DNA of 64,000 bases, from NCBI RefSeq assembly GCF_000003605.2, contig NW_003121417.1:216198-280197 (forward strand), given 5' to 3'. Position 1 is the stretch's first letter. Every line of letters begins with the position of its first letter. This DNA is from Saccoglossus kowalevskii. Taxonomy: Eukaryota; Hemichordata; Enteropneusta; Harrimaniidae. The notes beneath the pieces were generated by a model. It was not told where the DNA came from. It did not search any database and saw only the letters and a program-made list of their open reading frames with translations. Positions 725 to 64,000 of the stretch are shown one piece after another. A program made the position numbers and the translations under genes.

Positions 725-855
725 ACATACATACATACATACATACATACATACATACATACATACATACATACATACATACATACATACATACATACAT
801 ACATACATACATACATACATACATACATACATACATACATACATACATACATACA
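725..855. repeat. (ACAT)n microsatellite
   Basis: About 32 near-perfect copies of a 4-bp unit, placed between the tandem array and the terminal hairpin of the HINE-like element. It generates false Cys/Met/Tyr/Val open frames on the minus strand in all three phases. Confidence 0.97.
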
Positions 856-872
856 GACAGGGTAACTGCAAA

Positions 873-903
873 GACTCCCTTTTGTGCTTCGCACACGGGA
901 GTC
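873..903. repeat. Terminal hairpin of HINE-like copy 1
   Basis: Outer stem GACTCCC (873-879) pairs with GGGAGTC (897-903). An inner stem GTGC/GCAC closes on a TTC loop. The same hairpin ends copy 2 at 27656-27687, with one extra T in the internal loop. The outer arm equals the left terminus of copy 2 (ACTCCCGTGTGC at 26060). Confidence 0.85.
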
Positions 904-3900: not shown

Positions 3901-6480
3901 TAGCATGTTATATGTGTAAATATGCATTCTTTGTATATCATGTTTCAAAAATCGAATACATAATCAGTAAAACGATATATATTTAGACACATATAGATAC
4001 ATTAAAAGAAATGTTTTTTGTTTATTTCTCTGTCACCGGTAATTTACGCTATTATATGTACGCGCAATGGACATGCATTTGATATGGTCATTCAGTTTAA
4101 ATTAATCAACTCGTATAGTAATATTTAATGTCTCTGTCACTTTTGTATATACTAATACATGTAATCCCTGAAGGCGATGTAAATTGTGCACACGAATTCC
4201 TATAAACATGCAAACCGTGTTTGGCATATATAAAGATCCCCTTACATGTACATATTAATTACAATGTGTTAATCTGCAGATGCACTTCGATGGCGCTGGT
4301 ATAACTCTTGAATCAAATATATTCTAAGACTCTTAGACTTTTGCGCTTACCGAACAGGTACAATTCAAATTGATTTGTATTACTATAAGAGCATGCCACT
4401 TTTAATATGTAGATCCGTATCCATACAAATAATGACATTTATGCAAATCATTGCCAAAAGCTAGCACGGTTTCTAAGTGTTATTTCTCCATTACTAACGA
4501 ATAATGCTCTTACCATTTACTCGAATAAAATTCCTTCTATCAATTTGAGCAAGTTACCGACTCTCGTAATCACATAAATGAGTTTTTGGTTACGGGCATT
4601 TGCTCTGTATACAGTAAAACTAATATCACATCGAAGCAAACTCGAGAATTATTTATGATCCTAAAATGCCATCGAACATCCATGAACCCAGAACAATAGA
4701 TCACAAGCATAAACCGAGGGACTCACATTGCAATGAATATAACATAAAACAGTACTATAATATAAATTGTATCATTTTATGTGAAATATAATTTAGGCGC
4801 ATAATGACATTGCATTATACAGCGTCAGAAAATCTGTATATACAGCAGGAAGTCCACTCAACAAACATGAATAAAACGTAACCCTAATCCACTTGTTTGT
4901 CGCTGGTATTTGCGTATACATCATCTTAAATAACTAAATGACACATACACCCCATAGCACGGCCTGTCCCAGAGTCTGCGCAAACCCAATAAACACTGTA
5001 CGGATTTATGAAGGTGACGTGAAGTCATAATATTGCAGATTAACTCACTTGAGATAAGTGTAGAATAACGTTTGTGTTCAATGCAAACGAAGTTGATGAA
5101 TCACAACCATATATCAACGTGTTTGCTTTTCTAAATAATTAATTTTCTCACAGTATTAACAGAGCTGCTAAATACATTGGTTTTACATCAATAATAAAGC
5201 TTCATGTACACAATAAATTTTGATTTAGATTGATGCAGGGTGATGTCACATATGGGGCGAGATGTCCTCAATCATCTTGAAACATATTATTCCTTATAGT
5301 TGTATTCCCACTTTATATGACCTGCAGAACACCAATCCCTGACACCCCCAATAGCTTTGAATAATGCACAGTTCATGATAAAACTCATACAATATAATCC
5401 AGAAGTCGAATTTACAAGTCTCTCTTAAAATAAAATAAAATAAAATAATATAATGTGACATTGAGCGATAGCAACAATACGAAGTATGTTTGACTTGGTG
5501 ATTAAAATCTACGCCCTTCTGTGCTGGCTAGTTTCAGTACTAGTGCGGCAATGTTTAAGAAAATAACAGTAGTCAGTGGGAGGCGTTCTATATATAAAAC
5601 AATAACTAGGGAGGCAACATTAATAGAATGTCTTCAATTGACGTATCTTTCTCTTCCTGAATGTTATCATGTTTGTTAATGTTTGTCAGTCCGTTTATTG
5701 GTTTGTTTTTATTGCATAGTGTATATCATGGGTTTATTTTATTAGTGAACTTCCGGAGATTGTAAAATTAACTACTCCGAATCTAACACTCTTACGCGAA
5801 ATTTCTTTTGTTGTGCTAACAATAATCACATCGACATTTTAATTTATTTTGTTATTAAATTCAATTAATAAAATATACCAGCTGGTCAATGTAATACGTA
5901 ACAGCACGTATTTGTCTATAGTATGTGCAAACTACGATTTGAATGAGTTGAAAACGTTCTTCCTTCCACGCTTTAATGTCAGGTACACGAATCGACTTTG
6001 TATCAACACACTTGACAATAACCGTAATTTATACAAAGTACACGTACGTGATTAGTGAGTTCATTCACCAGCGAATATAAGTGAACACTAGATGTCCTAT
6101 TTTGTTTCACATTAAATGCAACCCTCGCGTTTACATAGGTTCTCATTAATGATTCCCGGGAAAGAGATAATATATTTTCTTTTCATCAGAGCTCTATTTA
6201 CGATCTCTCATATTTCATCTCAAAATGTGTTGACAGTATCAAGATCATTGTGTTTTAGAAAAGTTCGCTGCTTTACTATTTCATAATTAAAATACGACGC
6301 GATGAGACTCTGTTCATTGAACTCGTCACATCACTTTCAACCACGAGTGTTATATCCGTGCATTGTATATCACAGTGGGTGGCGATGTGTCATAGTCTTA
6401 TAAGAGCAAACACGTTTGATTGATTTATATTTGACTCATTACCATTTGTCATTTCTGAATCACTTCATCTTTGTTCAATC
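904..6480. other. AT-rich non-coding DNA
   Basis: No supported gene, array or RNA. The longest open frames are about 70 codons, have no splice-like borders and run through AT-rich text. Only a short (AAAAT)n run at about 5427-5448 stands out. Confidence 0.7.
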
Positions 6481-6482
6481 AG

Positions 6483-6605
6483 GAATTCTTGAGTTATTCT
6501 CCCGTAGTCCGCCCGCACATAACGTGCCCTCGTTGCCGACTGGCGCCAATTGTTGGGGATCCACCTAATCGCATCCAACTCTCTGAGATGGGTCGACCAA
6601 TTTAA
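6483..6605 (+). CDS. Weak candidate terminal exon, unknown product
   Basis: A pyrimidine-rich stretch ends in CAG at 6482 and is followed by an open frame of 40 codons to a TAA at 6603-6605. This segment is visibly richer in GC than the DNA on either side. The peptide holds a CPRC motif and several prolines but matches no family I can name. The minus strand is also open across the same interval, so the openness may reflect base composition alone. There is no neighbouring exon to join it to. Treat it as a lead only. Confidence 0.2.
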   Translation, partial: EFLSYSPVVRPHITCPRCRLAPIVGDPPNRIQLSEMGRPI

Positions 6606-9040
6606 ATTAAGCTTGGTGTGACGGAAATATATATTGGGCTGCAGCACGTCATGTTTGTATATATTTTCCGATTTAATATGGCCAACAGGTGGTCATTTCG
6701 TTTTGTTTATTATTGTATATTTATATTAATTAAGTATGTCCATTGGTGATGAGTTGAGCCAACAAGTCATAAAAACATTTTATATTGTGATATAGACTTA
6801 GGTTATGTATTCCGTTCAAACATGGCCAACCAGCGACCTCAAATGAATTATCATCATGTCAATCTTAATTGAAAATATCCAAAGTATCTACGTTTTTTCT
6901 GGACGTGTTCATATAATAAGGTTTGAAAATATTGTATCAGATAACAAAGCAAAGTTACACATATCTCATGATTAACTTTCGAGCATACGCATTGATTAAA
7001 ACTTGCGTGTGCATGCCAGAGAACCGACTGCCCGACCGCCAGTCGGCTACATTTTATCAGAAACATCCTTCCACCTACCATTTCTTTTAAACACATCTAC
7101 TTACATTTTCCATTTTTGTAAATATCAGTCACTCATTTGAGCTGTATGATAAAAATATTTGACATTGTTAAAATGTAATGTCATCTTTGTATACCATATT
7201 TGTATACGCGCGTGCGAGTCACAATTGGCCTTACATGTTACATAATATGTAATTGAACAAGGAAATAACGGCGAGTACACGGCATAGTAAATACTATATT
7301 GAATGAAAGTGAACAGTGTGTGTGTGTGACAGTGTGTGACTCGAACCGAAGCTCGCGTACAGCACCTAATTATAAATCGCTCAGTCTTGGCAAGTCTTCC
7401 GCTCGGATACAGTGCATCCCCTCAATATATTTAGACGTACCGAGACGTGAAGCCAGGCGATTTGGTTCCGTAAGCGAGCGTCGGTTCGAGTCATGCATGA
7501 AGTACATATTTACTTTTATTCAACATGCCATGTTGGCAGCTACTATGAGTTTAAATGTACTTCGGTACTCGCAAACATAACATTTCATTTTTTTTATTTT
7601 TCAACAAATTTCCCAAGATTGATATACATCAGCTTTGTCAAATTTGTTTCTGATATCGGTACATTTCCAGTTTCCATGGATACTAGTATTGTTAACATAT
7701 TCATTCCAATTAATGACAATAACGTTAAAACATTATTCCAATTATGTATAATTTTCTGTTTACGACGAATGAGAGGGTAATTAGAGAACAAATCCCGAAT
7801 TGCAGTGTAATCAATCACTATGAAATAGTGAATCAATATATTCAGTTGAATTAAGCCAACATGAAACAACGCAATTAAGGTATGTTCGCTCTAACTACTT
7901 ATTCGAATCAATGATGGGAGTATTAAAATCCGTCGTACATTCGCGGTTTCGTATTGCGATTTCCGGTGACTCCCCATTAAAATGGTTATGTTTAACGTCT
8001 ATAACTGAAGATAAACTTGTGATCATTTTTTTTGTCGTAATCATGACAATACCATATGCAACTCGTTTTCACGAGTCTCTGGGGAATACATTATATAGCC
8101 TATTACTATCGAATAATTGCTAACCGGAAATCTGCGTATATAACTTGTATCATCACTATTATAAGTACTGACAACACTGAATGGGATATTTAATATATAG
8201 TATTATGCGATCTTTATATGACCACGCACCATTCTTTACACTTGTTCTTAAATTGTCTGTATTTTCGTTTACCGATTACTAGAACAATTATCAAACTTCG
8301 CGTTCACATGAATTAAACATGGTTATTGAGGAATGCGTACTCTTAGACAAGTTGATCAACACTCAACTCAAGTATATAGTCGCTTATTCATAGTAGTTTG
8401 TACAAAACTATTAAAATTCCTTTATTTTACATCAAATCAAAAGTTAGTTTTTAATTTTACTGCTCATGATGTTACAAACCAATTTACTACTCATAATTAT
8501 TTGCCGTTTTTTCCCAGTCAATGTTTTTTTTCACTCATATGCATAAGTAAGCATGTGTAAAAATGCCACCACCGACTCCTTCCAGAAAATGGGCATTTTT
8601 GTTCGCAACCACAATCCAATAAGAAGCTGCGTGTTGTTACGACAGTAGATTTCCCTATACCTTTTTATGCATACATTACATTACCGTTGAGCTAAACTGA
8701 CTTGCAAACGAAGTTGCTAAGTATATATTAAATTAGAGAGCGTAAATCGCCGTCATAAATGCAATAATATTGCATAATTTATCCTCATCAATATTTTTAC
8801 CCTATTGTATATACATTTAACATGCTCACGTAATGACAAGTTACTTTCTCCTTCAAAAGAAAGACTAAAGTTTGTAAAAATTTGTTCACCAATGAAACAA
8901 TGTCTTTATATTTAAACAATATCTCCAAAGCAACTGAATCAATCTCTCCTAAAAAATAATGAGTTGGTTTATGTTTAAAGAACAACTCCTACGTAAAAAC
9001 CCAAGACAACGAGATCCAGATCTCAACTAACCTCTTACCT
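6606..9040. other. AT-rich non-coding DNA
   Basis: Nothing supported. Open frames near 7299-7580 and 7493-7869 overlap on both strands and have no recognisable motif. A GTTCGAGTC box near 7489 has no tRNA fold around it. Confidence 0.65.
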
Positions 9041-9560
9041 CAGGAGATGTAATCATTCTCGAAATCCAAAATCGACGGGTACGACATATTTATGACAGAC
9101 ATTTTGATGAAATGAAAAATCATTTGCGAAATTGTTGTTTTCATGGGAACTGGATGTACATCTCTACCAATATTCAATAGATAGACCATTGCCTCAAGAC
9201 AATCTTGCCAGCAAATTCATCTTTGCTTTTTCCATCTATCATTATATTTTTTCAGTTGTAAATGAAAAATAACTATTGTTTCAATGGCATATCTGAATCT
9301 CTACTAAAATCTAATGAATCAAGGGCAATCCTTCCTGAATTTTTTTTATAAAATTCCATCCAGTGGTTTTTAATTATAAATGAAAAACTATTCCCAGAAT
9401 TGCCGTTTCTATAGAAACCAGATCCGCATCTCTACTAAAATGTAATCCACCGGTGCGTATCAAGGGCACCCTCCTCAAAATTGTATGAAATATAAATGAA
9501 AAAAATTACTTCCAAAATTAATGTTTCTTTGGTAAACGACTCCTCATCTCTCCCAACTCA
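9040..9560 (+). repeat. Decayed tandem array (units of about 130-150 bp)
   Basis: The phrases 'aaatgaaaaa', 'tctctactaaaat(c/g)taat' and 'tcaagggca' recur about every 130-150 bp, each unit diverged from the next. The phrase 'ccatccagtggttttta' resembles the 'ccaatgagtggttctt' phrase of the arrays at 1-640 and 26-27 kb, so this looks like an older relative of the same class of array element. No terminal hairpin remains visible. Confidence 0.55.
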
Positions 9561-11589
9561 ATGGATTGGTCGTTGCACATCAACAGCAACACACTATATG
9601 TCATTTCATCCGTTATAAGTATTACAAAACATAGATTTGTGATTTCACACATTCAGCAAAACATGCATACATTCCTTCATGCTTATTATAGGCAGGCGAT
9701 AAGAGATGATTTGACTAAAAATCGATTGAATGTGCACGTCGTTTTTCCAAAAGCACACGAAATATGAATAGCATTACTCAGTCACAATATCAACTCACGT
9801 ATCTTATATTTGCAGGGAAGATGATTGCGTTTTCACTATGTATTCAGCCCCGAATGAATAGAATCAACCATACGATGCTATATTCGCCGTTAGATGGAAC
9901 GACATTATGTTATGAAAAGAATAAAAAAAAAAATTCTGTTTTTCTGACACCGATAATAAATATTTATTTTTCCTGCCGGATAGATTTTTAGATACGTTTC
10001 CATAATGCATGCGTTACAGCTTTCATCTCAAGAGGCATTAAAAGAATACCGCATATTATATAACGCGTTGTTAAATCATTTATTCACATTTTGCACAAGT
10101 CGATGAATATTATAATTTCCTGTACAAACTCTAACTATACAATTCTTGTTGATTGGAAAATATGCTGGCTTCTCACCGACCAAGTCGATATCGTAAAAAT
10201 TATGGTACCACAAATGATTGCAAAGAATAAGGAACAGGATCAATGCTGCCGGTGTGAGTGCATTAAGGTAGCAAAGTACGTCACGGCAAATCCTTAATTA
10301 CTTGTTAATATTAATCTCGTAATTTGGTAGGCCAAAAAATAAAATTTCATAAAAAAATCACTAAACAGCATGTTCTGGCATTCTAGCCATGGCCACAACT
10401 ACCACATTGAAGATATACCTCCACACACGTTGCAACTTTATCAGGAGAAGTAGACGTAATATTATAACAGTTGTTTACACAACTGTATATGACCACTATA
10501 TATATTTTGTCTACATGACAATCTGCGGTCGATTGGAAACGAGTAATCAATCCGAAATTACGGCTGGTTGCAGAGATCCGTGGCAATTGAAATGTTACTA
10601 AATAACATTAGGATTATATTCATCTAAAATCATTCACTGGTAGCGTAACATAGTCAGTCAGTGTCAAGGTCATGGTATTTATGCGAGTTTGATAAGACAA
10701 TTATCGGCCGCCTTCAAAATGTACACACTTGTTCACCATGAGGTCGGGGATACCGGGTTTGTACATTGAGAACAAAAGGTCACAGGCCAGCCCATGCACA
10801 TTTTTATTTATCCGCGCATAGGCTATGACAGCATAAACGACGGTTACATGAAATAGTCATTTTTCGCTTATATACAATGAGTGACACAGACTATTGACTA
10901 GCCTCAACAGATTATAAAATTAGGAAATAAATTCAATGCTTATCAACAAAATACATGATCAATCGATGTAGCATAACTGTCTTTCAACATTAAGGAATCC
11001 TTCAGCACTCACAATTGGTCGGTGCCTCTAGGTTAACCGATCTAGTCCTTTCCCTTCACTTCTATTTTTATAACCCATTAGCCATAACCTCTCTCTGACC
11101 GTATAATTGTTTCTGTCATCGCATTAATTGTGATGAATGGAAAGTAGTGACAGCACTTGACTGTTCCATGCCTTAGGATATTCGTTGGGGTACGTTTATT
11201 TTTGCAGTATCCCGACTTTGGCAGTGCGATTATTTATAAATTTACAGAGATCTCAAACGTGATATGAATTGACAATATGGAGATTCGTAATTATTTATGT
11301 ATTATTAATCTGCAGATAAGTCATTCAACTTATTGTGGAACAATAACTTGTGATGCTATGTGTTCATAATGTATTTTCGGTCACTTCGCCCGGGATATAT
11401 GACCGCAGGATAAACGCATCGCACGACAGGGCGAGTTGTAAGTAGGGTACTATGCGTTTATGTCTAATGCTATTCTCAAGTTTTGAAGATTTTGCATTCA
11501 GCTTTCTGGTTTTTTTTTATTGTATACTCAATACACGAAATACTTACATGTCACTGTTTGGTGGCCTTGTTGTTTTACGTTTATTCCAG
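9561..11589. other. AT-rich non-coding DNA
   Basis: No supported gene. A perfect TCAAGGTCA (10664-10672) matches the extended half-site of ERR/FTZ-F1 nuclear receptors but stands alone. A 70-codon frame at 10389-10601 begins in a good start context (ccATGGcc) but has no other support. Confidence 0.6.
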
Positions 11590-11727
11590 TTTCAGTGGAG
11601 GCGGCACCGCCGAAAAAAATGCGCGACGACTTGCGCCTACTGGGCGCAAGGAATGGTGAGCAGATCTCGCCCCTACTCATGCAAAATTCCGAGCCGCCGC
11701 CTCTGGGTTATAAAACATGTATAGCAG
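11590..11727 (+). CDS. Candidate internal coding exon, phase 1-1, unknown product
   Basis: A T-rich tract ends in TTATTCCAG at 11589, a good acceptor. The open segment that follows is much richer in GC than its surroundings and runs to CAG|GTAGGA at 11727/11728, a good donor. The length is 138 nt, so it can be skipped or included without changing frame. The peptide (about 46 residues) has PPKKMRDDLRLLG in its first half and SEPPPLGYKTC near its end: charged and Pro-rich, with one Cys. An alternative acceptor lies 6 nt downstream (TTTCAG). An alternative donor (AATG|GTGAGC, 11655/11656) would give a 66-nt exon, also in frame. No family recognised. If real, the surrounding window lies in introns of a plus-strand gene. 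Confidence 0.42.
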
Positions 11728-14431
11728 GTAGGATAAGCACATGTACGCATGTGCGGCACCATGGCAGCCTACAAGCAAAATGAATTTCATCGTAAAATTC
11801 CCCATCACGCGCTGAAATTGTTTTTTTTTTTTAATTTAGACATTCTTCATAAAGAGTGACATACTTTATGTCAGAAGCTGTACAATAGGATGTATTCACA
11901 CGCTTAGATCAGTGACGAGGAGAACGTGGGTATCAATATATTAAATGATAATATGTTTCAGGTCAACATAAACGGGAACATAGCATAAAGGGAACAGCAA
12001 TAACACATGTGAGTTCAATGTATGAATGCTTAGTTGAAAAGGCCACTTTCACAGCAATGTCAAAATGTGTACTTAACCTTAAATTATCCTTTTATACAAA
12101 GTGCACGTTCGTGATTTGTAAATTCAATTACTAGTCTATAAATGAAAATAATGAGTGACTGCTAGGTGCCATATGTTTCTATGCCATGCGTGAAACGCTC
12201 GTGTTCGCGCTGCTTCATTGTGCGTTTTTTCAATGGAGAAATGATTGCATATTTATTGTTATTGAAAATGCCATTTTCATCGTTAGGCAATACAATTTCC
12301 AAAAATAAATTATATCATATATTCTTTTTGCGTGACCACTGACAGACAATTGCGTATGCTCACTTGTGTTCATCTTCCTTCGTGTGTACTCAAGTTAAAT
12401 TAATATGAGTAGTCGACAGAAAAGGCAGGAGTTGAAGAAGATTGAACAGTAGTTACTGTCACATTACATTTGTCACGTAAATTGTTTCGTGTGCCGTGTG
12501 AAGCTCTTTCGGTAATTGCGCAGGCACATTCATGGACATGGATTAGTTTATAGAAACTATAGGAAACGTGTAATTTCGTCTGTAAATATATTGTAAACAT
12601 ACAAAGTATTTTATTCAGTGCGCAACACAAATTGGGCACTGCTCAAAGTCTACCGTGTAAGGATACGCTTTTCAATATTGGGTTGCCTGTATATACACAT
12701 TGTATATTGAGGAACAATCCTCAGCATGATCGAATAGATACGACATAACATCAGACATTAATTAGATTAAAAATATGTATGAAACAGAAGACGTAATGTC
12801 ATACTTACACGATGTTCACATTCGAATCTGCAAACAAATCCCAGAAAAAAAACACAGAATACAACGAATAAACCTAACTGTCTGGAAAGCATGCAAATTA
12901 CACATCTATTAAAATACATGACATTGTCTAATGAGAGAGAGAGAGGGAGAGAGAGCGAGAGAGAATGATATATGCCCCGCTAGGTATACACATCTAGAAA
13001 ATTATGTCATCTGTTCCAAACAAAATGAGCCCATCATGCCTCAATATTATATTGATCTTAATTGAAAATCAAATACTTCCCATTATTTAAACATATTGGT
13101 CTGCGCCAAGCAAGTAATACTGGTACCATACTTGCGTACAGTTTACATACTTATGCCCAAGAACAGACAATTAGTGGGCCATATAATTATGGTATACGTA
13201 TAAAAGGATCACTTGCTTGTTAAGACTGTTTTTATTATCTGTACTGTATGGCAGATTTGTTATTATCGAACAAAATTTATAGCAGATTATGTGAAAATAT
13301 GCCCCCTGAAAAATTCATTCGCGTCTGTGGTTTGACGCAACCTTTGACCTGTATTGCTATCAGTTAAACAATGTTCGAGAACGGTTGCGGTGGCACTGTG
13401 GGTACATCGAAGTTATTGATCGCATGCCTGTTATCACCTGATATATGAGGAAAATCATGATACATACTCATAAGTAAGCCATTCGTATGATTTAATAGCG
13501 TTGATGAATAGCGTTCTAGTCACCAAGCTACTTGGGTGAGAGTGCCTACACGGAAATCTGCTATTTAGTGTTCTTAATAAAGCCTCTATCAATCGACACT
13601 AATGCGATGGTAGACATACACTATCCAAGATTACAGCCGGAGATATATAGCCGCGGTGCATTGTGTGAAGACAAACATATCTTACCGAATGACTATTATC
13701 TATGCGTATGTATATCATTATGAAATCAGCTGCATATCGGAAATGACGTATATACAAATAGGGCGCATACATACGTGACCCTGCAGTAACATTTCTTGGA
13801 ACAAACAAAAACAGATTATAATTGATCGAACGACCTTTAATTTGCCTTCACTTAGTACTCCCCACAGGTGCAAATATTGTATCCAGAAGGTATTTCGTGC
13901 CGATTTGTTATATGTGTAACAACCGTTAATAAGAATTAAAAGACAACATTGCGGGAGTGTAATAATTGGTCTATACCGGTCCACTAAACAGGTCAAAACT
14001 CAGATAATTTTTTTGTGCTTAGTTTAATTAATTTCTTATTTCTATGTACCCATCGCATACATCGTAACACATTATTGATTTGCATATTGCGAGTGCGCGA
14101 GTCGAGTGAATAAACGATTTCCTGAGAGTCCTGCGTATTTCACGTAATTGATATATTGGGGGTATTATAGTCGTTACATTGCGCATGTATGCGACTTGTA
14201 TCGAACACGCGCTGACTGTCTTGGACAAAGGCCCCCTAACACGCATGGATGACAGGGACCAAAGTTTAAGTTTAATATTTTATATTAAGTTTCATTTCTG
14301 AGTGCACTGGAAAAATACATTAAGAACAATAAATTTAATGTGAAATCGATTAGTCAATATGGACAAGCGCCTTACCACTGCAGAGAAACGCGCCCCCTAC
14401 CACACCACAATGATTGATCTTAAAAGTACAA
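11728..14431. other. AT-rich non-coding DNA
   Basis: Nothing supported apart from a (GA)n run at 12933-12964. Overlapping open frames on both strands around 13532-13996 show no motif or splice-like border. Confidence 0.65.
12933..12964. repeat. (GA)n microsatellite
   Basis: An imperfect GA dinucleotide run of about 32 bp with two interruptions. Confidence 0.9.
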
Positions 14432-17022: not shown

Positions 17023-17184
17023 GGTACCTCGTGTCTATCAAACCAGATACGTCGTTCGATTGTAGATAAAACGTGTTTTCGGGCTGTCAAACATTCAGCG
17101 TACTGAATGATTGGAAGGTAACATGTAATATTAGACGTCTACCCCCAACATACATGGAAACGTGTACGTGTTACTGACGTGTTT
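17023..17184 (+). repeat. Left arm of the 162-bp inverted repeat
   Basis: Begins GGTACCTCGTG and ends ACTGACGTGTTT. It matches the reverse complement of 18533-18694. Confidence 0.9.
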
Positions 17185-18532: not shown

Positions 18533-18694
18533 AAACGCGTCAGTGACACGTGCACCTTTCCGTGTATGTTGGGGGTAGACGTATAATAGTACATGTTACC
18601 TTCCAATCATGCAGTACGCTGAATGTCTGACAGTCCGAAGGCACGTTTTATCTACAATAGAATGACATATCTGGTTTGATGAACACGAGGTACC
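18533..18694 (-). repeat. Right arm of the 162-bp inverted repeat
   Basis: Reverse complement of 17023-17184 without gaps. Confidence 0.9.
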
Positions 18695-26059: not shown

Positions 26060-27686
26060 ACTCCCGTGTGCTGAGAGTATTGAAGACACATTAAAAATTA
26101 ATTCAAAATTACTTGTACATGAGATATTGATGGAAAAGCTGAAAACTAATTATGTACATCAGGTAACTAATATGAACAGAACAGAACAAAAAAATTATGA
26201 ATTATTATGTTAATTAGAGAATTAATATAAACAAATTTTAACCCCAAATTAATCAGGCCTGTCTATTGTCCTAGAGCATTTATGTACCAAATTTTATTCA
26301 AATGTGATGATCAGTAAGTGAGATATCAGTGTTAATTAATTATGTTAATTAGGTGATTAATAAGCATAAATATTTACCAAAAACTAATTGGCTTTCTGCA
26401 TAGTTCTCTTTATAAATTTCATTAAAATCCAATTTGTGGTTCTTTATATATCAGTGGAACATTATGCAAATTAGGTAATTAATATCCAATTAAAACTAAT
26501 CAGGTCTCTGCATAATCCTAGAAGATCTATGTAGCAAGTCTCATTGAAATATGATTACTATATATCAAATCTGAAAATTAATTAATTATGCAAATTAGGT
26601 AATTAATATATACTGATATTACCCCAAAAACTATCAGGTGTGTGCAGTGTCCTATGACATCTATGTACCAAGTGTCATTGAAATGTGATGATTACTACTT
26701 GAAATATCAAAAGCTGAAAATTAATTAATTATGCAAATTAGGTAATTAATATGTACTCATATTACCTTAAAAACTATCAGGTCTGTGCAGTGTCCTATGA
26801 CATCTATGTACCAAATTTCATTGAAATGTGATGATTACTACTTGAAATATCAAAAGCTGAAAATTAATTAATTATGCTAATTAGGTAATTAATATGTACT
26901 CATATTACCTTAAAAACTATCAGGTCTGTGCAGTGTCCTATGACATCTATGTACCAAATTTCATTGAAATGTGATGATTACTACTTGAAATATCAAAAGC
27001 TGAAAATTAATTAATTATGCTAATTAGGTAATTAATATGTACTCATATTACCTTAAAAACTATCAGGTCTGTGCAGTGTCCTATGACATCTATGTACCAA
27101 ATTTCATTGAAATGTGACAATTACTACTTGAAATATCAAAAGCTGAAAATTAATTAATTAATTATGCTAATTCGGTAATTAATATCTACTGATATTACCC
27201 TAAAAACTATCAGGTTTGTGCAGTGTCCTATGACATCTATGTACCAAGTTTATTGAAATGTGATGATTAGTACTTGAGATATCAGTGGAAAAGCCGAAAA
27301 TTGATTAATCATTATGCAAATTAGGTAATTAATATTGCACAGATTTTTACCCCAAACAATTCAAATCTGCGCATTAGTTTGGAGCATCTGTGTGCCAAGT
27401 TTCATCAAAATCCAATGAGTGGTTCTTTAGATATCAGTGGAACAGTCATGGAACAGCTAAAAATCAGCTAATTATCATGCAAATTAGGTAATTAATATGT
27501 ATGGATTTTTACCAAAACCTAATCAAATCTGTGCATTGGCCCAGAGCATCTATATGCAATAAGTTTCATCAAAAACTGATGTATGGTTCTTGAGATATCA
27601 GTGGAACAGACGGACACACATACACACACACACATACAGACACACTAACTGCAAAGACTCCCTTTTTGTGCTTCGCACACGGGAGT
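26060..27686 (+). mobile_element. HINE/Helentron-like element, copy 2 (both ends present)
   Basis: The left terminus ACTCCCGTGTGC (26060-26071) matches exactly the complement of the right end (27675-27686). Inside is a tandem array. Four units of 143 bp are nearly identical (equivalent points 26641, 26784, 26927, 27070); the next point is at 27217 (147 bp), and then come units that match the 162-bp type of copy 1 (points 27366 and 27528). A CA-rich microsatellite (27607-27645) and the terminal hairpin (27656-27687) follow. No coding capacity. The near-identity of the central units points to recent local amplification. No clear target-site duplication, as expected for Helitron-class insertion. 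Confidence 0.75.
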
Positions 27687-28404: not shown

Positions 28405-31400
28405 TAGATGGATGTATCATTCACATGCAAAACGTACGTAAATAATGTAATGAAAATTACATTTGTTTTAATATGTACAATTACAATTTGTTAAAACTGT
28501 TATGTTACAAAGAATAGACATCTTTTATCATTCGACTATCATAATAGCATTAACTTGAGTTCAAAATGTAGGTTACCTTTATATCGGCTTTCCCGTGTCT
28601 TTGGACGGCTCAGTCGAGATTACAGGGTTTGGTGGTTGACAGACATTATATACTAGTTTCCCCGCGGAAAGTCTCCTCTACTACGTTTGCATTGGTTCAT
28701 TGCCAGTATAATTCTTTACCGTACATACAGAGCAGTCGCTGTTATAACCTGAACAATAGTAAGGATAAGAAAAAAAAAATACGTGAACATACAAAAACAT
28801 GTGTGAATTATGAATTAGAACATTTCACACGTGATTATCAGTACCAGTACCACTGTGTAAAAAGTGTGCAATTGCATAGGTTTAATTCGTTTCTGAAATA
28901 ACTTAATATGGGTCTATGTTTGCAGACAGCCAGAACTGAAATGACTTGTACACGCATTTTAGCAGAACGTCGAAAATGAGAGGGACCTAGCTCGAGTCAT
29001 TCCATTGGAGCGTGTTCGTTCCATTAGAGAGAGGTCTCAGCGATCAGGTGACAATGTCATGTGATCAACTCAGCAGACGGAGATCACCTGGCCAATGCTG
29101 GATACACGACATAACGGCAAATGTCGCTAGGTTTAGCGACTTCACTAACCGTTACAATTGAATTTGCTCGTTTGGAAGCCGTTTTTGCGACAGCCATGAT
29201 CGACACACTGTTTATATACGAGGTTTCCCTGGCACCATACGCGCTCATGACTGTTAGCCGGTGGCCATGGAATAAAAACGCGCCCATGTCAGGACATGGC
29301 ATGGCGTGCACAGACTACTAATGTCTCTGTGTTTCATGTAATTGACGTACAAACTATAAAAAACAATTCTAGTTCTGTTAGTCGAAAATGGTCGTAACTG
29401 AATATGGGCTATGCATTGAGTGCTAAGGACTATACGCTTTCCAATCAGGCGCAGTTTCCTGTTTCTCCGACGCTTCGTTTTCGTGTCACTGTCAAAATTA
29501 TTGCTACCTTTTACTTAACAGGGACTAAATGGTCTCTATAAAACGATAATCAGGATCGCAAAAAAGTCAACTGATTTGAAACACTTGCCGGACGTCTCTC
29601 TCTCTTCTGAAATCCGCCTCGGTGACCATGGGCTGGTCCGGAATCTATTTCTTTCAAAAGTGTTGCGCCAGGTTTACGTTGTCGACGTTTCTCTTTAAAC
29701 CTAGTCGTTTTTTTTTATGGACGAGGGCAGTTTTTTTCCAAAAAAAAAACATCTAAGTTTAAGTGATGTCGCACCTTCGGATTGATTAGAAACGTGTGAA
29801 TACATACACTATGGCTATACGTTTCACTGCAATTGCCCACAACACAACATCTAAAAACTCTCTCTCAAAAAACAAAAACAAAATAGACAAAAAACAAGAA
29901 AAAACGCCGACCGAAAAATGTATATCGTTTAAAAGTATACTGAACGACCAGTGTTATTACGGCTCAGGGGTATGACTTCCTCTCACATTTTGTCATTTGG
30001 TGGCGCACTTTCGGCGAGAGTCGGAAATCCGGAAACAGTCGACCGTTTCACGATAGGTGGGCGTGGCTACAATACGAGAAATATCCCAAATTTACTTGGA
30101 TAAGAGTAATCATTTTCAGCAAAAAAATCAATAACTACCCTTTTCAGTGGGACACAGATCTAAAATGGGAAACGTGAGGGTGGGCATTGCACAGGCACTT
30201 TAAACACAGATGCTATAGTTAACGATTCATACTACAGTTTTCGCAAAAAAGCCATGTTGATTTTAAATTTGCTTTTCGTGATATATGTTTTTCAGTGGCA
30301 TTGGTAAATAAATTGTAACATTTATAAGTATTTTTTTCAAATAATAATGTTTTATAAATTAGAAAATATTTTTTATTTCAGAGATGTTAATACGTCTGGG
30401 TTTCGAAATGCTTCAAAGCTTTGTCGCGGACTAATACCAATCAACGTTGTTAACTATTAGTGAATTAATGGGCTGAAAATAGTTCTCTGTGAAAATTTTA
30501 AAAATGGCCGTGACGCATATAACATGGACTAGTAACAGCAACTATATCTCCTGCATTTCGGACAGAAAAACTGCTGTGTTTTCTGGAAATCATGGATTTA
30601 GTAATTTTGACATGGTTCGGCAATGTGTGAGGCTTGTGTAAACAAATGACTGCCCAGTATGCCCAAGCTTTCGTCTATGGTGAATGAAGATTATGAATGA
30701 GAAAACAGGCAGAATGTTTTATTCAAAACTGCGGTAACATTCGCCCCCCCCCCCGTAAGCCGTTATACACATGTTTACAAGTCAGTACTCGGTGAAATGT
30801 TAACTTTTAATTTGAGACTCGAATTCAACTCAAATCAACTAAAATTACACGGTCTATTAGCATCAAAGTGAGTCGATACGTTGATCCGTTCAAAGCCATC
30901 TGTCTGGTCGACTGGTGATTTAGTGTACTTATACCCAATTACCCGTTAGACAGACGGTATCGACCGACTGTAATCATTCGCGTAATGCGATCTCTTGATA
31001 CAGTGGTTATGAGCTTATATAGCTGATGTCGTCTCGTTGAAATGATGACAATTTGAGTAAGGCCACATTAGTTGGTACGCAGTCCTTACCTCATTCGTGG
31101 GTGTCTTAACATTGTCAGAATCACCTGCTACGCATGGGAGATTTTTATTAAACTGGTTCTTAAATGCATAATGTAGCTTTGTGACGTATGCTTGACGATT
31201 TCATGAAATAATAGTCACAAGATTTTCAACAAACATTACAAATCCTCGAAACCGTTCAACCACGTAACATAAATGTTAGTCTAGATTGTCTTTAACACAG
31301 ATGTCGGTTTTTTTGTTTCTCGGAAATGGCCATAATGGTTATGGAAATTTTACTTGCATACAGTAAGACGCTGTGATATCTTGTTTATTAAGGAAGATAA

Positions 31401-35526: not shown

Positions 35527-35838
35527 TCAAACAATGAACAGTATATTATCAAACAACAAGTCGTGAATGACACTGCCTTCGCTAGTTGTCATTCTAAAGT
35601 TGCATGGACATAAATTGGCAAACGTGATTTCTATGGCATTTTCAAGTTTATAGCACTCTCCAGCCAGGTCAGCATTATTCTCAGCAAGGAAACCAGATAG
35701 CACCAAACCAGTACAACAGGTAAAATGACAAGGAAGTATACAAATCATATCTGCAAATATGTCAGTGTTGTGTCTGTTTGGATAAACTAGTTTGTGGCCC
35801 TGGATTAGTTTCAATATCTCTAATAAGAACAAGATTAC
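35527..35838 (-). CDS. Open frame overlapping the 2A leader, unknown product
   Basis: A frame of about 100 codons runs from a T-rich AG border (about 35839, CTTGTTCTTATTAG) to a TGA at 35527. It uses mixed codons rather than AT runs and has eight Cys, including a CHFTCC cluster and CPC. It lies in a different phase from the 2A-like leader that it overlaps at 35762-35838, so the two cannot be read together as they stand. Either this frame is a chance antisense-like opening, or one element has decayed out of phase. No family recognised. The opposite strand is also open in parts (35366-35613 and 35765-36091). Confidence 0.25.
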   Translation of the reverse strand, partial: VILFLLEILKLIQGHKLVYPNRHNTDIFADMICILPCHFTCCTGLVLSGFLAENNADLAGECYKLENAIEITFANLCPCNFRMTTSEGSVIHDLLFDNILFIV

Positions 35839-35911
35839 TTCTCATACGACAATGATACAAATAAAGTGCAAAAATCCAGAAAAATATTATCAAGTTTTTA
35901 TTATCATACAT
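35762..35911 (-). CDS. Hydrophobic leader with 2A-like ribosome-skipping motif (LINE-type ORF start or host leader)
   Basis: From an ATG at 35911 the minus strand encodes 49 residues: a hydrophobic stretch (residues about 7-19, LIIFFWIFALYLY), then RSNLVLIR and DIETNPGP (35818-35795), then 11 residues to a TGA. DxExNPGP preceded by Leu/Val/Ile-rich sequence is the signature of 2A peptides, which make the ribosome release at Gly-Pro and continue. In animals they occur at the N-terminus of CR1/L2-type LINE ORFs and of some sea-urchin NLR proteins, where the leader can also act as a signal sequence. Here the frame stops soon after the motif, so this is a remnant, or a first exon whose continuation I cannot place. 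No reverse transcriptase motif is visible nearby. Confidence 0.55.
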   Translation of the reverse strand: MYDNKNLIIFFWIFALYLYHCRMRSNLVLIRDIETNPGPQTSLSKQTQH

Positions 35912-36383
35912 AATATTAACAAATCGTGTGAAATTTCATTTACAGAGAAACACATATTTATGCTTTGGTTGACAGAACTTCTCAAAGTAAAAAAAGAGGA
36001 CCTGCGAAACTTTATACAATTGTCAGACACGCAGCGAATAGTACCGGTATGTTTTTGTAATACATGCAGTTCCAGTGGCTTTGCTTTCTGAGAAAAAAAT
36101 TCTGGCTCTGCACCTGAAAGATTTAATTAAAAAGGATATTTGAGTATTTTTAGTACGAAAAAATATTACTTAATAAATGTATACCAGCCAGAAAGATCGA
36201 TCGCTAGTTTCTCACTAAAGTCAGGACACAAAAGGATAAATCAAAGTTCATAATAAATACCATAAGCACAGTTTCTTACCTTTGTGAATATAATCTATAT
36301 AAGCCTTGTGCAAAGAACGATACAGTCCCGGAATACAATATCCTCATACGAAAACGACGCCGATTTCCTCAGCGGTTAGATTG

Positions 36384-36393
36384 GCGCATGCGC
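36384..36393. promoter_or_regulatory. Perfect NRF-1-type palindrome
   Basis: GCGCATGCGC is the full NRF-1 palindrome, unusual in such AT-rich DNA. No transcription start is identifiable next to it. Confidence 0.4.
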
Positions 36394-36531
36394 AATACGG
36401 TATGCCAGCTCTCTTGCGAGATGTCGTTAAAACTCGTATTTTTCTGGCAAATTTCGGCATTTTTACTAGTAAAATGTTGAAAATCACAGAAAAACACAAT
36501 GAAACTTTGGCGAATCAAAAAAATACTTGGC

Positions 36532-36566
36532 GTGCATATGTATGGCGTTGAGAATTACATATGCAC
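36532..36566. repeat. Perfect 11-bp inverted repeat
   Basis: GTGCATATGTA (36532-36542) and TACATATGCAC (36556-36566) with a 13-base loop, about 45 bp upstream of the GACGGACGG tail. Confidence 0.8.
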
Positions 36567-36610
36567 CAACTTTGAAAAACATTGGACAGAGCATATCAAA
36601 GTTATAAGAG

Positions 36611-36665
36611 GTAACAGACAGACGGACGGACGGACGGAACCCAATCTATAAGCCTTCGGCAGACA
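36611..36665 (+). repeat. HINE-like tail remnant: (GACG)n and TTC-loop hairpin
   Basis: A GACGGACGG microsatellite (36611-36638) is followed by a small hairpin GCC-TTC-GGC (36652-36660). This order and the TTC loop match the two well-preserved array families. The body upstream (about 36470-36610) carries 'accaactttgaaaaacattgg' type text but no clear array. Confidence 0.45.
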
Positions 36666-57722: not shown

Positions 57723-58845
57723 GCGAACGTGATTAACGTAACCCTTGTTGTACAGAACCCCTATTGGTCATTGGTCAATGACTCGTAGATATAACACCTG
57801 ATTTATGTTCGTTTCACAGTTGCGCGCCATTACAGATCACGTGTTCAGCTCATCCAGTGGAGTAGCCTTGCAGCTACGACGCTCGTCGATAATCTCTTAT
57901 TTCTGAAGGAAAAATGCTAACCTAAACACCTCAGTTCACGAGTTAGTCACGTGAGGAAATCCGAATGCTAAATATGTGCTGAACAAGATATCGCAAGTAA
58001 TTTGTTTATTATTCAACCAAAGAGAATACAAGTTTCATCTTTAATACGAACGCCACGGGTGACACATTTGTATGATTCGAGATACGATGATTGTATTCCC
58101 TCATCATAAACATGCCATCTCCGGCTGTTAAAGAAACATATGTTTATTCATAACTGGCACAGTGTTGGGTTTCCATGAACGCAATCTCCAATGAAATGCA
58201 ATACCACGAACGTGTTTGCAATCAACTATACTACAAAACTCCCTAATCATATTTATTGTATTAACACTCGACAGAGATTATCTCCTACAGCGTATTTATA
58301 TATATGTATGTACTTAAAGATATGAACATAGTACCCTTAGTGTACAAGCTGACTGGTGCTGCTCTGTGTTATCGATACTAGGACCGATCATGCGCAGTTC
58401 AGTATGGGAGGGGGTGCGATTCGATATTACAACGCGAATGATGGCAAGCTGAAGGGAAATAGCGATTAACCCAGATTAGGGAACACATGTGGCATTTCAT
58501 ATGATATGTCGACACACGATTCTGCCGTGTCAATAGTCAGTCATGTTGTCAGATGTACACCGAGGTGACAGGTGAACGGATATAAACGAGCTTTCCCTCT
58601 CTTCGATTAGTATGCACGTTATGCAAAAACAGCCACAGTTGGGTTGAGTTATTAGGATGGTGGGAATTCTTACCACGGCCTCGTTGCACACACCACTGTC
58701 AGTCAGTCACAGTTATTATCGTCTATACGAGGTTGGAATTTCTGAAAAAAATGTATTGACTTAGGAATTGATTTGTTATTTAGTGAATAGTTAGTTTGGG
58801 TGACATATTGTTGAATTGAGCACCCCAGCCACTTCAAAAATGTAC
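57723..58845. other. AT-rich non-coding DNA
   Basis: Nothing supported. Confidence 0.6.
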
Positions 58846-58849
58846 TTAA

Positions 58850-59517
58850 GGATGTAGTAGAGGATTTTTTTTCTTTGAAAATATCAAATTAACTTTTTTT
58901 TTCATATTCTCCTATAAGCATATATAAAATGCATTCAACTAGAAAAAAACAATTGTAGCGATGGTTTAGGAGGGCAATACATTTAGATTAAATCTGAGAT
59001 ACAGTGTGTTTTATGTGTTTTTTTGTGATTTTTCCACGCATAAGAAAACGTCAGTATTTAGGGTTAGTCTAAAGAGTTGATCTCGACTCCCAGCTGCTCC
59101 ACGATAGTGATTTTTGGCATAGGTGTTCTCTGATAGCTGCTAATAAAATCTGTCAAAGGTAGTTTGTCTACTACTTTGACTTTAGAAAATACGACACAAC
59201 TCTCCCCGTTGTGAACTCTGACATGGGGTATCATATTTCAAAATAACGTTGAAGACGTTTTTGAAAAGCGTTATGAGGTCAAAATCTAGATCACGCAACA
59301 GTAGACGAACTGGGCAATTGAATTCAAACGTTTTACAGTATCTCTAAGTAGCACGAACATCATTTCTGTGGTCTTATTTCGGTTTCTTCGAAAATAACAT
59401 CTGTTTGTACAGTGATCACGTGATTACACAGCTCCAGTTTTGTTGTTGGAATATTTATTTCATAGTACGTCCGAAATGTGCTATTCAATTGCAGTAGCAA
59501 TAACCTCTACTACATCC
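58850..59517. mobile_element. TTAA-flanked MITE (piggyBac type), 668 bp
   Basis: TTAA (58846-58849 and 59518-59521) flanks exact 14-bp terminal inverted repeats GGATGTAGTAGAGG and their complement. TTAA duplication is the hallmark of piggyBac-superfamily insertion. No transposase frame is present, so the copy is non-autonomous and must have been mobilised in trans. The interior is AT-rich with two inverted short blocks. The TIR start GGATG differs from the CCC start usual in piggyBac, so the superfamily assignment rests mainly on the TTAA. Confidence 0.65.
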
Positions 59518-59521
59518 TTAA

Positions 59522-61558
59522 CACAGGCATTAAATACACTTACATGTTTATATCAAGATTTGTCTTGGCAAACAGAGATCAACAATATTATCAACATGAT
59601 ACTCCAACATTTTACTATGTGTAACTGGTTACACTAGTTCGGACGAAGTGTAGCGTCTTGCTCGTCTAATTCATTGCGTCTGTTCGTTCTTTCGTCGAAG
59701 GCAATAAACTATACATTTCTTGCATGGTCTGTTGGAAAGTCGACTAGCGTCCATGTTTTCTATGTCCATTCTCAAGAACGCAAGGGCGGATTTTGCGACA
59801 ATGACGTTCTCTTCTTGTTTGCGACCTATTTCAGATAAACCATATTTCAATTTGGGTTCACTGAACACATTTGTGTAACAAAATCCATAGTATTCAATAC
59901 GTATAGTGCGTTGAATCTAAACACGGTATTGCACGGTATGCACAAATATTATAAACAAAAGACCCCCTTACTACGCCGTTTACATTGATATCGAAGTCAA
60001 TAAATACCATATATCAACAAATCAGTACACAATAAAGGGAATATATAATGTCACAACTCTGTTGTTATCCCTGTAAACATTCCATTATTGTATATATTTT
60101 GGGCAACACTGATGGGCATATTTGTTATAGATTTAATGTGTTCCCGCAATTTATATTTTGCGTATTCCGGATACTTTTTAGACCGTATTAGATACATTTA
60201 ACACAGGGCAAGCAATCCCGGCCATTGATCAATAATTGTGACACAAAATGAGTTTTACTTTCCGCATCTGCCATCATCTGAAATTAAAACTGTCCCGTTT
60301 TAAAATCCCGCTCCTCCATCAAATCCTCAGTATTATAACAAATTTAAATAGTAATTTTACCATGTTATTATCTGTATTGAGAGCAATTGTGATCAGAATA
60401 TGTGTTTCATGGAGTACGTGACATCGATGGATTGATGACACCCAATTATGATAGTAACTATTTCTTGTTCGCGATGCACCTGACTAATATAGATTGCAGT
60501 GAGAATTACACCTGGGAATTTAACCATAATGACTCTTACAAATTGTCGATCTATTAATAGATTATGCAAATTGATATTATTGAGATGATGATCCGCGTTC
60601 TTTGAATAATAAATTATATAATAATTGCTCGAGTGTACCTCAATGTTGTCATGTATTTAAATTTTAATTAGATGTACCATTACTCAGGCTGGCGTAATAC
60701 ATTCAAATATTTATTGTTGCGTTAGTGCGCAATATAGTCTCCTGGTGCAAATGTTTGCTCGCTTTCTGTTACTTGTGTTCTGAAAACCATTTTCTAATGC
60801 TGTGGATTTAATGACTTTCAATTGTCGTGAACGTCTCTCACGGGAACGGACACATGTCGAAAGGGGACTACTTGATGGAATAGAATACATGATTGTTGAC
60901 AACAAACGAGGTTATGTTTCATGAAATGAATCTTGGTGGATTGATGAGTTTACGAGCTACAGTCAAGGAACACTCTATATCGTGTTTAGCGATATAACGT
61001 TGTTTGGCTACAGTTGCTTATTCATGATGGAAATCGACAACAACACATACTTCAATGCAGTGGTTTCATCAACCCACAGTACTGACATTGATTAACATTA
61101 CACATTGATGTTCATTCAATATTTACATAGTTAATCTTTAGGATATATAAGTCAATCGGCATCGGTTACGTAATCATTACCCAATTACAAGTAACCTTCA
61201 TAATTTCAAATTACGATATGGTGTATTCCGTTGGGACACTCCGTCGCAATAGCAATCAATCAGTTTAACCGAATTCTCCAATCTGCTGTTTTCACTATCC
61301 ACAATTACGCAGGATTAATGATGCTCGAAAACGTACTTTAGAGAACTAAAACAACCGTGGTTACTGCGGTAAGAGCCAACCTATCTAGGAAACTATTTAT
61401 AGCTCTAGCAGTAATAACATATACGATGAATAAATGTTGTTGAGTGTGCGTTTTTCTGTTAAGTAGTTTGTACTCAGTTTTTAAAGTGATATACACGAAA
61501 AATAAAGCGATGTTTAGCAATGTATGTCTAGCATCCAAAACATGGCACATAAATGATG
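59522..61558. other. AT-rich non-coding DNA
   Basis: No supported gene, array or RNA. Confidence 0.6.
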
Positions 61559-61650
61559 GGTGATGTTGAAACCGAAATCGTCATTCAACTCAGAAGCCAT
61601 TAAGCGCGGTCTTACAGTTAGATGACAATTTCGGTTTCAAATGCCCAGAG
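61559..61650. repeat. Stem-loop of about 92 bp (possible RNA hairpin)
   Basis: The arm with TTGAAACCGAAATCGTCAT (from about 61566) pairs with the arm ending in GATGACAATTTCGGTTTCAA (61621-61640), about 25 bp with two mismatches. A looser extension lies outside and a loop of about 25 bases inside. The size would suit a pre-miRNA; no known miRNA seed was recognised. A small MITE is the alternative. Confidence 0.5.
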
Positions 61651-64000
61651 AAAGTATTCCACGTTCTTCGTGTAATTGAGTGTTCGTATGCGAGGGATTT
61701 TTCCACACAAAAACGACGAATTCAGATGATAATTTCAGCGCCTGGCTTAATAATTGCCCCTACGAATTGTTTGACTGGGATAGTTTGGTAGTTTTTTCTT
61801 GATTTGTAGAAAACTGAAAAAAGGCGTTTCACAACTTGTCTCTTTATTTAGTTTCATGTCGTATTCAAGATGGTGACCCCCATATAGTAAACAACGCATT
61901 TATTATCACTTGTGTGCCAGCTGACTGTGTATAAATAGAAGACTATTTGTTGATTGGTTTCATTTCATAATTCGAATTTGTTTCATATACGGACGAAAGT
62001 GAATCTCTCTAGTTTGAATACAGTTTTTTTTGCAAGTGATGTCATGCCTGTATTTAATAGGGGTTCTATAATAAGTAAGCCTTGAAATAGTGAATACAAT
62101 TTTAACGATGACTAATTGGTACTGAAATGGCGAACTGCTACATTTGAAGTGAATAAATAGCTGGACCATTTTTTCTGCTATATTGCGAATACCGGTGTAC
62201 TTGAACCAGCTTTATTTGGAACATTCATGCTGATTACTATTTAATTTAAAAAATGACTAATCACCATTTGTTATTTTTGTTAAAAGTTGGAGACTTAATG
62301 GTGTTTTGTATATAATATAGCCCTGCTTTTAAAGTAACATTGTCGAGTTTAATTCCTGCAAAACATTCACCACAGAAACGGCTGCCACTTTTAGAAGAAT
62401 GACGTGGTATGGAGAATTGATATGTTGTGTACTAGTATAATGCAAACAGCTGCTGAGCGCGTAGACACGAGCTTTATTACACTTCCTGGTATGCCTCGAT
62501 ACTTCCCTTACGTCATACTTGCATTCGGATGCATTGCTGAAACAAACGTTAATTTTCTATTATATAAGAATTCAATTAGTTGATTTAATCTAGCTTCAGC
62601 TGATAGCAAAGCGAGCTCCATGAATATTTAAAACGCTTGAATCCGTTCATATGGAAATATACATAACCAAACGAAATGACGTGGTACTATGTAAACGACA
62701 GTACCGCTAATTATACAACATTTGATGATTTGCATAATTGATCGTATAAATCAACGAAAGACTAACAATACTGAAGATACTATTTATTACAGGCACAAAA
62801 CGAATGTAAATTACACATAGGATTAGAACTCACCACTTCGAAACATCTTATAATGAACGCGGGCCTACAATGATTAGATTAAACATGGATATTCTGACGT
62901 CACAAAAAATGTGCAGAATACATTTCTGCATATATACAGAACCAGGTATTTCATAATCAGAACGACTTAACCAGTTACGATTAGTTATATTCTCATTTAC
63001 GATTTCGTGATTCATTATTATATACCGGCCAAGTAATTGACAGCGCGGGTAATCATTCAGCCACGGCGTTGCAGCTGGTGATTTCTAGCATTAATTTAAG
63101 ACAAGCCATAGTGTTACTGACCATAATTTACCCACTGCAACATTAAAAGCAGCTGGCCTGAAAGTGTCCGTGTGCCGTTGACAGGGTGGAGTTATTTTAA
63201 GCAGTGATGTTATGAAATAGGCTTGTGGTTCTGGCTCATGAGTGGTCGTGGGAATAGATAGTGAAAATTAAAGAATGATTTGTTGATTGAGAATTATGTT
63301 GACTATGCCTTGTACTTAAAAATAAATAACGCAGCCAGTGTATAAGTAGCTAACACTGTTCTCAATCGTAATAGCAATCAGGTAAAGCATCTGTTTCTAG
63401 TACCCATGCGCAGAAGTAAGGATGCTCGAGAATGTACGTGAATATTTGATAATTGATCAAAAAAATGTCGGTTACACGTAATAACCTGCCGACCTGTTTT
63501 TTTTAATTAGTAAAGCTTTGAAAAAATAATGACCATCGATACATAACACTTGAAATGAAATAGCCTTATGGACTGCCATATGTCTTAGATCAGAGTAACA
63601 TTTAATGAAATGTACACTCTGTAAGAATAATAGTTCTGTTCACAGTCGACTTCGCTGCAGTTTCAATAAATTAAAACAGAAATACAAAATATAGTCGACA
63701 ATGAAGAAACAAAAATAGTGAGACAATCACAAATATCCAGTGAATACAAAAAAACTGTGTGGTGTGCTTGAAAATTGCAAAGCGTCATGAATATTATTAT
63801 TTAAAAAGTAATATTACATTGTTGAATAATTACCCCGTGTTTGTTTCGTTGCTATGTTTTATTTCGATAGCGTCTACATAATTGATAGTGCCTTTCTACA
63901 AACAGAGAGTGAAATAAACTATAGCTCATCATGTCTAAGTGAGGTTATTTGATTGTTAGACTGTGCCACGCCTAAATTATTTCCCGCAGTGATTCTCGAG
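61651..64000. other. AT-rich non-coding DNA
   Basis: No supported gene or repeat. A full CRE lies at 62895-62902. Confidence 0.6.
62895..62902. promoter_or_regulatory. Full CRE palindrome TGACGTCA
   Basis: Perfect CREB/ATF site in otherwise plain AT-rich DNA. Confidence 0.4.

What the first reader, a model, noticed from the sequence alone, without database searches (positions are those of the whole stretch)
35762..35911. 2A-like ribosome-skipping motif behind a hydrophobic leader
The minus strand encodes DIETNPGP (35818-35795), an exact DxExNPGP 2A signature, after a Leu/Val/Ile-rich stretch and a membrane-like N-terminus that begins with ATG. A chance match to six fixed residues is unlikely in 64 kb. 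In animals such leaders are known from CR1/L2-type LINE ORFs and sea-urchin NLR proteins, where they may double as signal sequences. Here the frame ends 11 residues later and no downstream domain is visible.
Basis: partly seen in the sequence, partly recalled or inferred. Interest (0 to 1): 0.7.

Follow-up and report, generated by a model that had tools for sequence, protein, structure and literature searches.

The report
Relic 2A leader in mobile repeat
A short stretch of animal-like DNA that spells a ribosome-skipping signature turns out to be a dead remnant of a protein start, copied around its genome inside a mobile element of an apparently rolling-circle kind, which is a setting where such signatures do not seem to have been described.

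Summary
DIETNPGP is at minus 35818-35795, in a 49-codon frame that stops 10 residues later. Alone it looked like chance: Arg instead of Gly before the core, upstream score among coincidences. The host-genome search, answered only, overturned that: 53 matches in 572 Mb. The window copy (36664-35555) belongs to a dispersed repeat whose ends resemble non-autonomous Helentrons (HINEs): T-run, subterminal repeat with inverted repeat, (GTCY)n tract, 3' subterminal repeat and palindrome (PMC4067079, PMC7492417 passages). Diverged relatives carry a canonical 2A (LLLSGDIESNPGP, VSGDIETNPGP) leading into a conserved domain, HQGS...STCMTNS. The window family lacks about 209-218 bp directly after the 2A, which breaks the frame. 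Copies show no coding constraint; the octamer is exact in 10 of 21. So: a real 2A by descent, dead here, not LINE or NLR as far as seen. A 2A-led ORF in Helentron-like elements may be new; 0 papers in the library hold both 'helitron' and '2a-like'. No autonomous element was found.

The parts
35555..36664 (-). Window copy of the dispersed repeat (non-autonomous Helentron-like), with an internal deletion near 36198
36651..36664 (-). GTCTGCCGAAGGCT, inverted repeat next to the 5' subterminal repeat; the T-run and 5' subterminal repeat are missing in this copy but present in L025, L033, L034, L040, L041
36614..36637 (-). (GTCY)n tract
35762..35911 (-). 49-codon relic of the leader frame
35795..35818 (-). 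DIETNPGP, relic 2A core
35785..35794 (-). 10 bases left between the core and the next homologous codons; 219 bases in relative L044
35770..35784 (-). Codons for YPNRH, out of frame with the leader; homologous to the domain behind the 2A in relatives
35575..35582 (-). GCGAAGGC, 3' subterminal repeat
35560..35571 (-). GTCATTCACGAC, 3' palindrome with one mismatch against other copies

Best explanation
The window holds one dead copy of a dispersed, non-autonomous repeat with Helentron-like ends. The repeat carries the remains of an ORF that began with a hydrophobic leader and a 2A, so that ribosomes would have released the leader at NPG and continued from Pro into a conserved domain. In the window's family about 209-218 bp just after the 2A were lost, which broke the frame; copies then drifted without constraint. 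Shown: multicopy repeat, its ends, relatives with canonical 2A plus domain, the deletion, the lack of codon constraint. Inferred: skipping in the ancestor, rolling-circle movement, and that the 2A-led ORF was a Helentron's own gene rather than captured.
For: Genome search: 53 matches. Twenty fetched copies plus the window were compared; most share a 3' end about 355 bp after the leader start and, where complete, a 5' end. 5' motif in 5 of 21 (T-run and subterminal repeat) and 3' motif in 15 of 21 by exact pattern. Features match HINE descriptions in PMC4067079 and PMC7492417. Relatives: L044 scores +10.7 upstream, within the genuine range 10.2-17.3; L045 is intermediate at 0.4; the window -7.2. 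L044, L045 and L048 have canonical 2A before the domain; L055 has GGDIVTNPGP; L057 has a window-like FRDIETNSGP and still has the domain. L057, L059 and L061 align at DNA level on both sides of a stretch of about 200-218 bp that the window family lacks. Codon positions 1/2/3 differ by 0.315/0.265/0.389 between L044 and its relatives but hold 23/29/15 variants in the leader of 21 repeat copies.
Against: No autonomous element with Rep/helicase was found; that family search was unanswered. No consistent target-site pattern was seen by eye; one copy (L034) has a possible 7-bp duplication. The domain is unnamed: 0 PDB sequence matches and no Pfam search was left. The codon-position contrast is biased, because those alignments were made in the coding frame. 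The exact-pattern test finds no HINE ends in the stretches held around the 16 relatives tested, so their link to the repeat rests on those that align to it at DNA level (L045, L046, L048, L049, L057, L059, L061). The window copy itself scores like a coincidence upstream of the core.
Confidence: 0.83

Rival explanations
1. Same history, but the 2A-led ORF was not a Helentron gene: a host gene or another mobile element's gene fragment was captured and spread. (Not exclusive of the best explanation in its other parts.)
For: Helitron-type elements capture sequences (PMC7492417, passage). L044 and L051-L056 show no alignment to the repeat around the leader, only short or distant pieces.
Against: Many decayed copies of the 2A-domain ORF (68 matches) suggest an element-borne gene; Helentrons are reported to carry extra cysteine-protease ORFs (PMC4067079), though my likening of this domain to one is recall.
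Confidence: 0.35
2. The repeat is not Helentron-related but another non-autonomous class (MITE-like, or the 3' part of an unrecognised retroelement).
For: Target-site behaviour was not established; several copies lack the 5' end.
Against: The set of HINE features, including (GTCY)n, is present.
Confidence: 0.13
3. Coincidence: the octamer arose by chance in non-coding DNA. This was my reading.
For: Upstream score among coincidental rows, Arg at p11, unremarkable hydrophobicity.
Against: Homologous relatives with canonical 2A and a following domain.
Confidence: 0.02
4. A working host leader at this locus, spliced to a distant domain.
For: ATG and hydrophobic stretch.
Against: Poor donor in frame (23rd percentile of 3,930 GT sites), frame broken by the deletion, no codon constraint among copies.
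Confidence: 0.02

Closest known systems
HINE, non-autonomous Helentron (Cg_HINE of oyster, HINE-Mo of mite; PMC7492417, PMC4067079)
   Same: T-run, 5' subterminal repeat plus inverted repeat, GTCY-type tract, 3' subterminal repeat followed by a palindrome, dispersed internal-deletion derivatives
   Different: Carries a relic 2A-led ORF; autonomous partner and TT target not shown here
StopGo/2A of the Leu-rich class (motifs 2 and 6 of PMC12846837)
   Same: Relatives L044 and L045 have the canonical core with Ser-Gly before it; L044 scores as a genuine leader
   Different: The window copy has Ile-Arg before the core and no downstream product
2A leaders of non-LTR retrotransposons (fetched: L007, L008, L012, L014)
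   Same: Open N-terminal stretch, Leu-rich run, 2A, then the main ORF
   Different: Those continue 252-1,065 residues and carry or precede an RT frame; here a different domain and element
Sea-urchin NLR 2A signal leaders (PMC4981915)
   Same: Short N-terminal hydrophobic leader ending in the 2A; in L044 the stretch from Met to the final Pro is 24 residues, against 26 there
   Different: No NLR domain

Membership tests
HINE / non-autonomous Helentron | 5' subterminal repeat behind T's, with complementary inverted repeat | tested here: met
   L034, L040, L041 in full by pattern, L025 and L033 in part; the window copy keeps only the inverted repeat; hairpin folds in L034 and L041, the two folded
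HINE / non-autonomous Helentron | Microsatellite near the 5' end | tested here: met
   (GTCY)n at 36637-36614 and in copies
HINE / non-autonomous Helentron | 3' subterminal repeat and palindrome within the last 60 bp | tested here: met
   15 of 21 copies by pattern for the repeat, palindrome seen in most 3' ends printed; weak stem in DNA folding of two copies, not formed in the window copy, which has a mismatch
HINE / non-autonomous Helentron | Insertion in TT without target duplication | tested here: inconclusive
   flanks viewed by eye only
HINE / non-autonomous Helentron | Autonomous partner with Rep/helicase/endonuclease | not tested
   search unanswered
StopGo/2A sequence | Core D(V/I)ExNPGP | tested here: met
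   window and L044, L045, L048; exact in 10 of 21 repeat copies
StopGo/2A sequence | Suitable upstream context | tested here: inconclusive
   met by L044, intermediate in L045, not met by the window copy; a cardiovirus-type tail printed in PMC4231674 matches 10 of 11 window residues p9-p19
StopGo/2A sequence | Downstream product | tested here: not met
   window frame ends 10 residues after NPGP; met in relatives such as L044
StopGo/2A sequence | Peptide-bond skipping | not testable with these tools
   needs a reporter assay
2A-bearing LINE | Endonuclease and RT in the element | tested here: not met
   no Pfam hit above cut-off in scanned window stretches; 20 frames from five retroelement contigs gave three matches with E up to 1, one the motif itself
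NLR 2A leader | NACHT/NLR domain | tested here: not met
   none in the scanned window stretches

The most novel reading that the evidence does not exclude
A 2A leader is a standard part of an accessory ORF of Helentron-type rolling-circle transposons in this lineage: skipping separates a hydrophobic leader from a protease-like domain, the first such use in a DNA transposon.
Probability: 0.42. Interest if true: 0.65.

Novelty: new variant of a known kind. Interest (0 to 1): 0.45.

Why it matters
Printed accounts seen here place 2A in viruses, non-LTR retrotransposons and sea-urchin NLR genes. A 2A-led ORF tied to Helentron-like elements would add DNA transposons, suggest a further route by which 2A leaders spread, and give a testable set of natural leaders. 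It also shows how a decayed leader can pass for coincidence until its genome is searched.

Tried and rejected
First reading, now dropped: coincidence. It rested on motif statistics, a p1-p11 profile of six genuine leaders (+10.2 to +17.3 leave-one-out) against nine coincidental matches (-16.1 to -0.3) with the window at -7.2, slid profiles (window 0.7 at best, coincidental rows up to 4.9), and plain hydrophobicity. Limits: L002 was left out as a duplicate; five of 6 genuine and 6 of 9 coincidental rows were found with a pattern that demanded Leu/Phe at p7 and p9; three coincidental rows are related genes; 'genuine' and 'coincidental' are my labels from context. Of 9,627 shuffled windows at least one scored higher than the window; a Gumbel fit gives 1.7e-3.

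Pattern scans: exact octamer, 2 viral contigs with one phage-like protein; GGN plus core, 2; Leu/Phe pattern, 0 in viral and 11 in prokaryote contigs, five of them retroelements and six in bacterial-looking contigs, one of these in a 211-codon frame that may not be a gene. Relatives in viral contigs: none for the leader or for the L044 protein. Rfam and tRNA scans of the window found nothing. Pfam hits under every cut-off were taken as noise. Pfam not run on: minus 1-3000 and 63901-64000, plus 1-13000 and 57901-64000. L018 was misoriented and dropped; codon counts for the repeat are only.

Papers not held: PMC3708506, PMC3894237, PMC12338488.

Full report
What is there. Minus-strand 35911-35762 is a 49-codon frame with DIETNPGP at 35818-35795 and 10 residues after it. 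It is the only NPGP in the window; no second copy lies in the window. Per window the match is improbable, but the hydrophobic features are ordinary for this AT-rich DNA.

How the reading changed. From the window alone I favoured coincidence: the residues before the core scored like nine coincidental matches and unlike six genuine leaders. The genuine set came from retroelements met by chance in a prokaryote collection and one printed sea-urchin leader. The host-genome search, unanswered 11 times, then answered: the window is G000:C1415:216198-280197 of a 572-Mb assembly, and the peptide has 53 matches, 45 with E below 1e-3; the tool calls such counts lower bounds. I withdrew the coincidence reading.

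The repeat. I fetched about 10 kb (6 kb in one case) around 20 of the 53 places. With the window that makes 21 copies. Most share a 3' end about 355 bp after the leader start; the most complete reach about 2.0 kb before it, giving about 2.4 kb in L039. The window copy runs 36664-35555 and lacks over 1 kb that L027 and L039 have upstream. Complete 5' ends read T-run, AGCCTTCGCAGAC, a short spacer, GTCTGCCGAAGGCT, then (GTCY)n; 3' ends read GCGAAGGC, then GTCATTCATGAC and CTTGTT, with small variants. This is the layout given for HINEs in PMC4067079 (passages and section 7 read) and PMC7492417 (passages). The 5' end folds into a hairpin in the two copies folded; the 3' stem is weak. Pairwise divergence over the leader and 3' part (about 385 bp) is 5-29%, median 9.7% over 210 pairs.

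No constraint here. In the leader of 21 copies, variants at codon positions 1, 2 and 3 number 23, 29 and 15 over 49 sites each; after it 48, 47 and 50 over 65 sites each. The octamer is exact in 10 of 21. So the copies carry a neutral relic.

What it is a relic of. Weak matches led to diverged relatives. L044 has ...MQLYLYYMRMILLLSGDIESNPGPTSN... and its frame runs 155 residues more after NPGP; L045 and L048 have MRSTLFVSGDIETNPGPQ and MRGTLFVSGDIETNPGPQ and DNA alignable to the repeat. Searching with the L044 protein gave 68 matches. Across those read, the part after the 2A keeps a pattern HQGS, STCMTNS, WNS, LY...YPNR, STYLQ, DL. L057 keeps a window-like FRDIETNSGP and the domain, so the Arg before the core probably predates the deletion. 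L057, L059 and L061 align to the repeat on both sides of about 200-218 bp that the window family lacks; from core to YPNRH there are 10 bases in the window and 219 in L044, a difference not divisible by three, which explains the early stop. Codon-position divergence between L044 and its relatives (0.315, 0.265, 0.389) suggests past constraint, with the caveat that alignment in frame favours this. Most relatives hold stops too.

Function. Inferred, from established StopGo knowledge: in the ancestor the leader was released at NPG and the domain began with Pro, or stayed fused and membrane-directed as shown for a sea-urchin leader (PMC4981915, abstract, part of Results and passages). In the window nothing of this remains. 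The domain has no PDB sequence match; its likeness to a cysteine protease is my recollection, and PMC4067079 reports OTU-like cysteine proteases in Helentrons.

What is not settled. No autonomous Helentron was seen; target-site behaviour was not established; whether the ORF is a Helentron gene or captured is open (0.35 for captured). In the library, 0 papers hold both 'helitron' and '2a-like'; a broader listing showed none on both among the 10 shown of 316. The library lacks most subscription papers.

Other literature: PMC12846837 (abstract, sections 9, 10, 14, passages), PMC8623073 and PMC4231674 (passages), PMC2885027 (abstract and first part).

Noticed in passing
L005:2-7387 (minus; contig VGXS01000063.1, labelled a Planctomycetota MAG): A 2,462-residue open LTR-type polyprotein (RT, RNase H, integrase) carries two near-identical 2A-like modules, one before the RT and one between RNase H and the integrase zinc finger; one paper search listed three papers, none titled on this.
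   Followed up: partly
L007, L008, L012, L014: LINEs with Leu-rich 2A leaders in contigs labelled bacterial or archaeal, most likely eukaryotic contamination.
   Followed up: partly
L001 4941-4963; L002 1191-1213: Exact DIETNPGP in a long phage-like structural protein, an example of the octamer without 2A context.
   Followed up: yes
L054, L055, L060: A second family of 2A-domain relatives with LTCQVK and a GTEHQ-type stretch; L055 has LLLGGDIVTNPGP, a changed core.
   Followed up: partly
L046 1963-2457: A 165-codon open frame with a C-x2-C...H...H run next to a decayed copy, possibly another mobile element's gene; seen by eye.
   Followed up: no
window 1-605, 26492-27335, 27306-27609: Related 143- and 162-bp tandem arrays at distant places, up to 86% identical; HINEs are reported to carry such arrays (PMC7492417), so these may be further HINEs.
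   Followed up: no
window 17023-17184 and 18533-18694: 162-bp inverted pair, 89.5% identical.
   Followed up: no
window 30000-30203: 94% identical over 204 bp to a stretch of L018, another dispersed repeat.
   Followed up: no
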